Positions 7,629-61,683 of a DNA stretch of 64,000 bases are shown here, piece after piece. How positions within the stretch are numbered: the stretch's first letter is position 1; each line of letters opens with the position of its first letter. The notes under the pieces were generated by a model. That model was not told the origin of the DNA. It made no database searches and saw only the letters and a program-made list of their open reading frames with translations. Location of the stretch: assembly GCF_024582835.1 (NCBI RefSeq), contig NZ_CP102096.1:992001-1056000 (forward strand). Reading direction: 5' to 3'. Position numbers and translations under genes: made by a program. The DNA comes from Vibrio japonicus. GTDB lineage: Bacteria > Pseudomonadota > Gammaproteobacteria > Enterobacterales > Vibrionaceae.

Positions 7629-7738
7629 TGGAGGCCCTGGTCCTCCCGCAACAATAGCTCGTGAACTCGGTCAGGTCCGGAAGGAAGCAGCCGCAGCGAG
7701 TGACTTGTGTGCCGGGATGTGGCTGGGGCTTCCACCCA
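7629..7738 (+). ncRNA. ffs: Signal recognition particle 4.5S RNA
   Basis: The conserved SRP core is intact: GGTCAGGTCCGGAAGGAAGC carries the GGAA tetraloop, and AGCAGCC then GTGTGCCGGGATGTGGCTGG form the Ffh-binding symmetric and asymmetric loops. The outer ends (GGAGGCCCTGGTCCTCCCGC and GGCTGGGGCTTCCACCC) pair to close the rod. Length about 110 nt matches bacterial 4.5S RNA. Exact ends are estimated from pairing. Confidence 0.96.
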
Positions 7739-60057: not shown

Positions 60058-61230
60058 TTAACAATCCGCACATTCATCTTCATTCCCGCCAGCTTCTTGG
60101 AACCAGCTTGTGAGATGCGTTTTCAGATCTTTCAACTCGTCTGGGCCAATGAGTGCCAAACCTAAGTCTTCTGCTCGAGTAATATCATTGTGGCGAAGAG
60201 GTCGGAAACTCACCAACATAGCGCGAGCCTGCAAGCCCCCAAGTAAGTCTCTGAGTGATTCCAACTTGTACAGCGTATCGTCACCGTCGTCTCGCATACC
60301 TTTGGTTTTACACTCTATGATGTGCAGTTTGTTATTCACGACAGACGCAACGTCAAGCTCATTTCGGACTTCTCTATCACCAAGCTGACGATAAACTTGT
60401 ACGTTTAATGAGTGATCCTGAATCGTTGGCATGTCTTTTTGAATTTGACGAACAGTGCTGTGTACGAGCGTTTCGAGCCATTCCCCATTAGAGAAGCGTC
60501 TCGCATCTTCATCGGCGAAGGTGAGAATACCCTTTTCGTAAGTGGCGATGTCTGCTTCAACCAAGTCACTGAGTAGCATATTAAGTTCACGATAACCTTG
60601 TTGCTTCTCAGACAGCTCAACATCAAGCTTTTGTTCTTTACGGCATGTGGTGGCTAAATAATTGAGCGTGGCTAAGCCTGGCCCTAGCTCTAAAGCATTG
60701 CTTGCCCAGCGTTCACCCAACTCATAAAGCTTTTGATCCAATTTAGGTGGGAGTTGGCTCTCGCTAAATTCGCCTCGAGCACCAAATATTGTCAGATAAT
60801 CATCTATTGTTATGCGATCTTGTACTTGAGCATCGTCTAGACCATCAGGGTACAGCCAACACAAGCGGTCAGAACTTGGCTCTACAACGAAAATCGGCCA
60901 GTGAAAACTACGAAATATCTCATATACCGATAACAGGCGATGACGAAGACCACAGCTCGCGTTCAGCTTTACCTCTGTGAATCTTTGATTTAAATCGTCT
61001 GCAAGAAGTGCGATTGCCTGTTTAATTTTGGAAGTATTAGCAACATTAGGGATTTCAAAAAACTCAGAGGTAATTTGACGTTTCGCCAGTACTTTATGAA
61101 GGCGCGCATACATCTCTTCTTGCGCTTTTACGCCAATAAAAACGATATGGTTACTGGTAGTACGATTGTCTAGCAACGGAGTTACCAAGCGAATAGGGTC
61201 TTGGTCGATGATGCCAACATGTATTGCCAT
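60058..61230 (-). CDS. Orphan DUF1887 (Card1/Can2-type) CARF-like nuclease
   Basis: 390 aa. N-terminal CARF-like Rossmann domain (about residues 1-150), a middle winged-helix-like linker (about 160-245), and a C-terminal PD-(D/E)XK nuclease: GEWLE (Glu253), NELDV (Asp293), LHIIECKTK (Glu306-x-Lys308). In CRISPR-linked Card1/Can2 the CARF pocket carries an N-x-T-G-G-T-K-type motif; here the equivalent stretch reads LNASCGLRHRLL (Asn90 to Gly94), so ligand recognition has probably changed. The V. cholerae orthologue VC1899 has a known structure (1XMX) and no assigned role. No CRISPR array or cas gene is near; neighbours are fadR and hinT. Confidence 0.88.
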   Translation of the reverse strand: MAIHVGIIDQDPIRLVTPLLDNRTTSNHIVFIGVKAQEEMYARLHKVLAKRQITSEFFEIPNVANTSKIKQAIALLADDLNQRFTEVKLNASCGLRHRLLSVYEIFRSFHWPIFVVEPSSDRLCWLYPDGLDDAQVQDRITIDDYLTIFGARGEFSESQLPPKLDQKLYELGERWASNALELGPGLATLNYLATTCRKEQKLDVELSEKQQGYRELNMLLSDLVEADIATYEKGILTFADEDARRFSNGEWLETLVHSTVRQIQKDMPTIQDHSLNVQVYRQLGDREVRNELDVASVVNNKLHIIECKTKGMRDDGDDTLYKLESLRDLLGGLQARAMLVSFRPLRHNDITRAEDLGLALIGPDELKDLKTHLTSWFQEAGGNEDECADC

Positions 61231-61683
61231 AACTGTTCCTCAAGTATGGCTTGCAAAAAAATGTGAAGGAAAATAAGGGGCAAGCCTATTATCCATATAA
61301 TGTCGCGGGTCATAAAAAACAAGGGTAACTCGCAAAATTAGACGTGTTTGTTCCTACTTTCAATATTGTTATAGCGTAAATGATGGGCTGAGAGTCTCGT
61401 TAGCTCCTAGATCTCCATTGAATTTACCAACATTGGTTTAAGAACCAGCGTGACTGAATGAGATCATTAAAAGCCTTGGTCTATTATAGGTTTAATAAAA
61501 TTGCTTTTATTTTGCTGATCACAAGATAAACACTTGTCGTGTTTAAGCGCAGAGTTTGTTCAAGGAAGATTCCGATGCACGTTTTATTTGGCGTTAATCA
61601 CTGATTTTCATTGGTGATTTTGCGCCGCTTGACGCATACTCGAGGACGACAAATATGTAAAAGATAAAAACACGGAGCACTTC
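61231..61683. other. Intergenic region between the DUF1887 gene and hinT
   Basis: 453 bp between divergent starts; no gene seen. A short minus-strand frame (61594-61800) overlaps hinT and has no support. Confidence 0.55.

What the first reader, a model, noticed from the sequence alone, without database searches (positions are those of the whole stretch)
60058..61230. Orphan Card1/Can2-type nuclease with a diverged CARF pocket and an intact PD-(D/E)XK site
Seen: nuclease residues Glu253, Asp293, Glu306 and Lys308 are kept, while the pocket motif that in CRISPR-associated relatives reads N-x-T-G-G-T-K-like is Asn-Ala-Ser-Cys-Gly-Leu-Arg here. Known: Card1 and Can2 are DUF1887 proteins activated by cyclic oligoadenylate from type III CRISPR. 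Here there is no cas gene or array and the neighbourhood (fadR, nhaB, hinT) is core genome. Inference: a vertically kept, CRISPR-independent ligand-gated nuclease that senses a different nucleotide, or one whose gating has been lost; the adjacent HinT acts on adenylated compounds.
Basis: partly seen in the sequence, partly recalled or inferred. Interest (0 to 1): 0.75.

Follow-up and report, generated by a model that had tools for sequence, protein, structure and literature searches.

The report
CRISPR-free CARF nuclease kept by vibrios
Nearly all vibrios sampled keep a protein built like a CRISPR-triggered nucleic-acid cutter, mostly without the CRISPR system that would trigger it; its signal pocket was rebuilt and then held constant, so it probably answers to a different, still unknown, signal.

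Summary
It is the orthologue of V. cholerae VC1899 (structure 1XMX), and the main facts (orphan, cA4 pocket lost, nuclease residues kept) were published in 2021 with the suggestion of a degenerate enzyme "cast adrift" from CRISPR. My comparative data argue against degeneration. A match occurs in 241 of 247 Vibrionaceae genomes, RAMP (type III) genes in 16. In 91 intact orthologues the five nuclease residues checked are invariant, as are six of ten pocket positions named in print (D9, D11, R14, R96, V115, Q334); their codons vary silently. Two of the ten (10, 34) vary. dN/dS is 0.005-0.044 in 12 pairs. The pocket differs as a set from CRISPR-linked relatives (S-x-Q ... NATGGTK ... YVHP against D-x-D-P-x-R-L ... 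NASCGLRH ... VEP). Orphans with related pockets occur in Pseudoalteromonas, Thalassotalea and Kangiellaceae. Best reading: a Can2-type nuclease domesticated into a core, CRISPR-independent protein, probably gated by another ligand. Ligand and activity are undetermined. HinT is not a conserved neighbour: found in 7 of 20 Vibrionaceae loci, a phosphorylase-family gene in 15 of 20.

The parts
60058..61230 (-). VC1899-type CARF/PD-(D/E)XK protein, 390 aa
   Evidence: ORF; PF09002; 1XMX match
60781..61230 (-). CARF domain, about residues 1-150
   Evidence: AlphaFold2 model, mean pLDDT 92, aligned with CARF domains of solved structures
61186..61206 (-). pocket motif 1, residues 9-15 (D-Q-D-P-I-R-L)
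   Evidence: D9, D11, P12, R14, L15 in 91 of 91 orthologues, Q10 in 68 of 91; mostly S-x-Q in CRISPR-linked relatives
60940..60963 (-). pocket motif 2, residues 90-97 (N-A-S-C-G-L-R-H)
   Evidence: N90, S92, G94, R96, H97 91 of 91; A91 and C93 90 of 91; L95 88 of 91
60877..60888 (-). pocket strand, residues 115-118 (V-V-E-P)
   Evidence: V115, E117 91 of 91; P118 90 of 91; residue 116 V or I; YVHP in most CRISPR-linked relatives
60511..60780 (-). middle region, residues 151-240; PMC1462988 places a winged-helix domain at 161-249 of 1XMX
   Evidence: 37 of 90 positions at least 98% conserved; passages
60091..60510 (-). PD-(D/E)XK nuclease domain, residues 241-380
   Evidence: PF09002; 75 of 140 positions at least 98% conserved
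60472..60474 (-). catalytic-site E253 codon
   Evidence: 91 of 91
60352..60363 (-). N290-E291-L292-D293 catalytic motif
   Evidence: 91 of 91
60304..60318 (-). I305-E306-C307-K308-T309 catalytic motif
   Evidence: 91 of 91
61248..61286 (-). possible 5' leader stem-loop GGCTTGC...GCAAGCC ahead of the ribosome-binding site
   Evidence: all 7 pairs kept in 19 distinct rows, but no compensatory change; rows were chosen among loci that showed the pattern

Best explanation
The gene encodes a CARF-winged helix-PD-(D/E)XK nuclease of the same stock as the type III CRISPR effector Can2. An ancestor left CRISPR control; its cyclic tetra-adenylate pocket was replaced by a different set of residues (D9, D11, R14, L15, S92, C93, R96, H97, V115, E117), which has since been held nearly constant as the gene became core in Vibrionaceae. 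Most likely mechanism (inferred): a cellular ligand other than cA4 binds across a CARF dimer and closes the nuclease domains on DNA or RNA, as cA4 does in Can2. Because type III genes and SMODS-type CD-NTases are both uncommon in the family, the ligand is more likely a core metabolite, a product of nucleic-acid damage or something brought by phage. Shown here: homology, retention, constraint, independence from type III genes, pocket replacement. Inferred: descent from a CRISPR-linked ancestor, dimer, gating, ligand class, activity in the cell.
Against: The V. cholerae orthologue showed very little RNase activity, no plasmid nicking and no cA4 control in vitro (PMC7969007 passages), so no real activity is established for any orthologue. 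Two of ten published pocket positions vary: 10 and 34. The p-values ignore shared ancestry and rest on nine positions. All pairs with the window itself were saturated for dS, and two of the 12 computed pairs have dS over 2. The divergent member G001 (41%) has Y and D at 115 and 117. Three copies are interrupted. CRISPR-linked relatives also occur in G202 and G013, so this kind of signalling is not absent from the family. The CARF domain is not wholly foreign to the Card1 CARF profile: one orthologue scores just below its cut-off and some close ones carry it in the precomputed annotation.
Confidence: 0.6

Rival explanations
1. Degenerate defence enzyme cut adrift from CRISPR, no longer functional (published proposal for VC1899).
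For: Weak RNase activity, not cA4-controlled, negatively charged pocket (PMC7969007 passages). Three interrupted copies seen among 105 extracted relatives.
Against: Retention in 241 of 247 genomes, dN/dS at most 0.044 in the pairs computed, invariant catalytic and pocket residues.
Confidence: 0.07
2. Functional nuclease whose ligand gating is lost; the CARF dimer is only a scaffold and activity is set by substrate, partner or expression.
For: Little activity and no cA4 control reported; an acidic pocket does not suit an anionic ligand; the CARF domain is less conserved overall than the nuclease domain (mean 0.744 against 0.894).
Against: D9, D11, R14, R96 and Q334 are invariant with silent codon change; I judge that to be more than a scaffold needs (inference).
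Confidence: 0.23
3. It still serves type III CRISPR or CBASS signals supplied in trans, with altered specificity (for example another cyclic oligonucleotide).
For: The 39%-identical relative in Neiella litorisoli has a related pocket and lies beside a type III-D locus. The passages read report tests with cA4 only.
Against: 225 of 241 carriers have no RAMP gene and 223 of 247 genomes no SMODS match; the Neiella gene is convergent with the cas operon, which has a CARF-TM protein of its own.
Confidence: 0.1

Closest known systems
VC1899 of Vibrio cholerae (PDB 1XMX)
   Different: Scattered substitutions, for example V34 here and Asp34 in VC1899
Can2 (7bdv and the 8q3y-8q44 set), type III CRISPR effector
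   Different: 23% identity to 7bdv, 15% to the 8q set; cA4 contacts Ser, Thr, Lys, Tyr replaced (passages); no RAMP gene in this genome
Card1 (6wxw, 6xl1) and Cdn1 (9u49)
   Different: 17-19% identity; solved with cA4 by title. This CARF gave no PF23400 CARF_Card1 match at E up to 1, though an orthologue scores 22.4 bits against a cut-off of 24.6 and some close ones are annotated with it
RtcR CARF regulator
   Different: Transcription activator with an AAA+ domain, no nuclease domain

Membership tests
DUF1887 / Can2-Card1 protein family (by homology) | PF09002 endonuclease domain above cut-off | tested here: met
   213.6 bits, cut-off 26.4
DUF1887 / Can2-Card1 protein family (by homology) | N-terminal CARF fold | tested here: met
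DUF1887 / Can2-Card1 protein family (by homology) | PD-(D/E)XK catalytic residues | tested here: met
   E253, E291, D293, E306, K308 in 91 of 91
cOA-activated type III CRISPR effector | cA4-contacting pocket residues | tested here: not met
   Sequence alignment with CRISPR-linked relatives; structure-based comparison of VC1899 in PMC7969007 (passages)
cOA-activated type III CRISPR effector | Linkage to or co-occurrence with type III genes | tested here: not met
   No RAMP in this genome; RAMP in 16 of 247 Vibrionaceae genomes
cOA-activated type III CRISPR effector | Nuclease activation by cOA | not testable with these tools
   VC1899 reported as not cA4-regulated (passages); other cOA sizes were not mentioned in the passages read
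Degenerate remnant | Relaxed selection or frequent loss | tested here: not met
   dN/dS 0.005-0.044 in 12 of 22 pairs, the rest saturated; no match in 6 of 247 genomes

The most novel reading that the evidence does not exclude
VC1899-type proteins are a housekeeping branch of the CARF superfamily: a core, CRISPR-free nuclease switch of Vibrionaceae (with scattered cousins in Pseudoalteromonas, Thalassotalea, Kangiellaceae and a Shewanella MAG) gated by a ligand that suits an acidic-plus-arginine pocket, such as a guanine-containing or cationic nucleotide or a broken-RNA end, and cutting nucleic acid under a chromosomal stress signal.
Probability: 0.33. Interest if true: 0.8.

Novelty: new member of a known kind. 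Interest (0 to 1): 0.5.

Why it matters
The published view of VC1899 is a possible relic. If a family-wide core gene keeps a CARF-nuclease with a rebuilt, frozen pocket, then CARF signalling in bacteria is not only a CRISPR matter, and the ligand hunt has a defined target protein, residues and hosts. It would give a CRISPR-independent CARF sensor beside RtcR, this time joined directly to a nuclease.

Tried and rejected
HinT as partner: rejected, see synteny. Phosphorylase-family gene as partner: in 15 of 20 Vibrionaceae loci, convergent in all 15 (one ORF between in two), so not co-transcribed; kept as a lead only; Pfam run on one copy. Cas10 profile PF22335 as the type III marker: it matches in 209 of 247 genomes and in E. 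coli among the controls, which I take for GGDEF proteins; 7 genomes reach 99 bits; I used RAMP PF03787 instead. 5' leader hairpin: no covariation. NCBIfam: one chance-level hit. Rfam: no match near the gene. Foldseek against the PDB and viral libraries did not run; the VIA-align second look did. The 2020 CARF superfamily paper and the Card1 paper, known to me from recall or a reference list, are not held. Monophyly of all orphans is not supported: G638, G607 and an Acidobacteria MAG group among CRISPR-linked proteins. Support for the VC1899-type clade is moderate: 91, 74 as printed after re-rooting, where labels may shift by one branch. The gene tree was not compared with a species tree.

Full report

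What was known. PMC1462988 (passages) noted in 2006 that this protein comes from a genome without CRISPR and has Rossmann, winged-helix and endonuclease domains. PMC4012209 (passages) shows its CARF domain as a figure and mentions another non-CRISPR member of the VC1899 family in a secretion cluster. PMC6981274 (passages) expected the cA4 site to be largely preformed. PMC7969007 (12 of 14 passages shown) tested it: no plasmid nicking, very little RNase activity, not regulated by cA4, pocket residues not conserved (Asp9, Asp34, Arg96, Val115), catalytic Glu291 and Asp293 present; the authors suggested that it may be a degenerate enzyme cast adrift from CRISPR. Full-text searches for VC1899, DUF1887 and 1XMX, CARF with Vibrio and cyclic oligoadenylate (20 of 31 papers listed) and orphan Can2 terms listed no title or abstract opening about its retention across Vibrionaceae, and CARF domain with Vibrionaceae found no paper. 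The library is open-access only, and two relevant papers are not held.

Retention. The protein finds a match in 241 of 247 Vibrionaceae genomes (12 of 13 genera). Of the six without, four are 1.0-2.6 Mb genomes; the others are G169 (3.1 Mb) and G003 (4.4 Mb, 94% complete). In the order sample 46 of 394 match: 34 rows of Vibrionaceae and 12 of other families at 39% identity or less; no Vibrionaceae appears among the non-matches that the output lists, though 328 non-matches are unlisted. In the class sample 23 of 368 match besides this genome. RAMP genes, a type III marker, occur in 16 of 247 Vibrionaceae genomes; each of the 16 matched the query at E 6e-150 or better, so 225 of 241 carriers have no RAMP. 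This genome has none. It does have a cas1 on contig 2, with neighbouring ORFs and a 26-mer occurring 32 times that I recognise, from recall, as type I-F; type I-F is not known to make cyclic oligoadenylate (recalled).

Constraint. I extracted 105 relatives from the fetched loci, dropped three interrupted copies and 12 relatives under 58% identity, and aligned 91 rows including the window. These are 91 of the 241 carriers, chosen partly for closeness and partly for spread over genera. Invariant in 91 of 91: D9, D11, P12, R14, L15, G33, N90, S92, G94, R96, H97, V115, E117, Q334, and catalytic E253, E291, D293, E306, K308. In 90 of 91: A91, C93, P118; L95 in 88. Variable: position 10 (Q in 68) and position 34 (45 D, 30 V), which is one of the four residues that PMC7969007 singled out. 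Codons at the invariant sites vary silently, for example six codons for R14. Of 22 pairs tried, dS could be computed in 12, with dN/dS 0.005 to 0.044; two of these have dS over 2, and the other ten pairs, including both with the window itself, were saturated. By domain, in nine pairs, the values stay at or below 0.053. Published pocket positions in the CARF domain are more often at least 98% conserved than the rest of it (6 of 9 against 33 of 141, p 0.01; at 100%: 5 of 9 against 27 of 141, p 0.02); shared ancestry is not corrected for. If G001 (41% identity, 2.6 Mb genome) is counted, motif 1 holds except position 10, while positions 95, 97, 98, 115, 117 and 118 change.

Pocket switch and relatives. 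CRISPR-linked relatives mostly read S-x-Q-P-x-P-N, N-A/V-T-G-G-T-K and I-F-Y-V-H-P, with some that depart from this (G202, G013, G742); Vibrionaceae read D-x-D-P-x-R-L, N-A-S-C-G-L-R-H and V/I-E-P. Of 30 genomes tested for RAMPs, the eight without were G015, G001, G385, G567, G551, G275, G638 and G607; of eight genomes behind named records, seven had none, among them the four Pseudoalteromonas and P. phenolica, the exception being Sedimenticola, whose pocket is of the CRISPR-linked type; the Shewanella MAG could not be searched. In trees, the Vibrionaceae group joins these orphans and one CRISPR-adjacent protein of Neiella litorisoli; that gene lies convergent to a type III-D locus that encodes a CARF-TM protein. 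Other orphans (G638, G607, an Acidobacteria MAG) lie among CRISPR-linked proteins, so orphan status arose at least twice if the ancestor was CRISPR-linked.

Neighbourhood. In this window the order is ftsK, dsbB, nhaB, fadR, this gene, hinT, lpoB-like; fadR and hinT were checked by Pfam, the other names are recalled. In 20 Vibrionaceae loci, hinT was found in 7 and fadR in 2; a phosphorylase-family gene (PNP_UDP_1 in the one copy scanned) is near the gene in 15, and a chemoreceptor-type gene lies between gene and hinT in 3. Some flanks were cut by contig ends. No neighbour is shared by all, and none of these common ones lies in one operon with the gene.

Mechanism. Shown: fold, catalytic residues, selection, loss of the cA4 residue set. 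Inferred: dimer, ligand gating, nucleic acid cleavage. Type III genes are uncommon (above), and CD-NTases of the SMODS type match in 24 of 247 genomes (21 over the cut-off) and not here, so a family-wide activator made by those enzymes is unlikely; other CD-NTase profiles were not run. The acidic D9, D11 and E117 with R14, R96 and H97 could suit a guanine base or a cationic group; this is inference. [quoted passage not shown] Lost gating remains a serious rival because the V. cholerae protein was nearly inactive and no ligand is known.

Verdict. Real, correctly described, largely published as an observation; the new part, as far as the searches named above show, is the evidence that it is a conserved core protein and not a relic. 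I score interest 0.5.

Noticed in passing
window 61248-61286: Inverted repeat GGCTTGC...GCAAGCC in the likely 5' leader, all pairs kept in 19 distinct Vibrio rows (20 loci chosen among those matching the pattern), preceded by a conserved CATTATATGG segment; no compensatory changes.
   Followed up: partly
L255 (G000 contig 2, 196000-214000): cas1 followed by ORFs resembling a type I-F operon and an array with a 26-mer occurring 32 times; outside the window.
   Followed up: partly
L066-L085: A phosphorylase-family gene is a frequent convergent neighbour (15 of 20 Vibrionaceae loci); fadR takes its place in the window and in L082 and L083.
   Followed up: partly
L086 (Neiella litorisoli): VC1899-type gene convergent with a type III-D locus that also encodes a CARF-TM protein of 508 aa.
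   Followed up: partly
L092, L093 (G202), L094 (G013): Further CARF nuclease relatives near RAMP genes in Vibrionaceae genomes that also keep the core copy.
   Followed up: partly
L180, L214 (Thaumasiovibrio occultus): Two VC1899-type genes in one genome, one per chromosome, the second 36% identical to the window protein.
   Followed up: no
window 7635-7731: Bacterial small SRP RNA, 76 bits.
   Followed up: no
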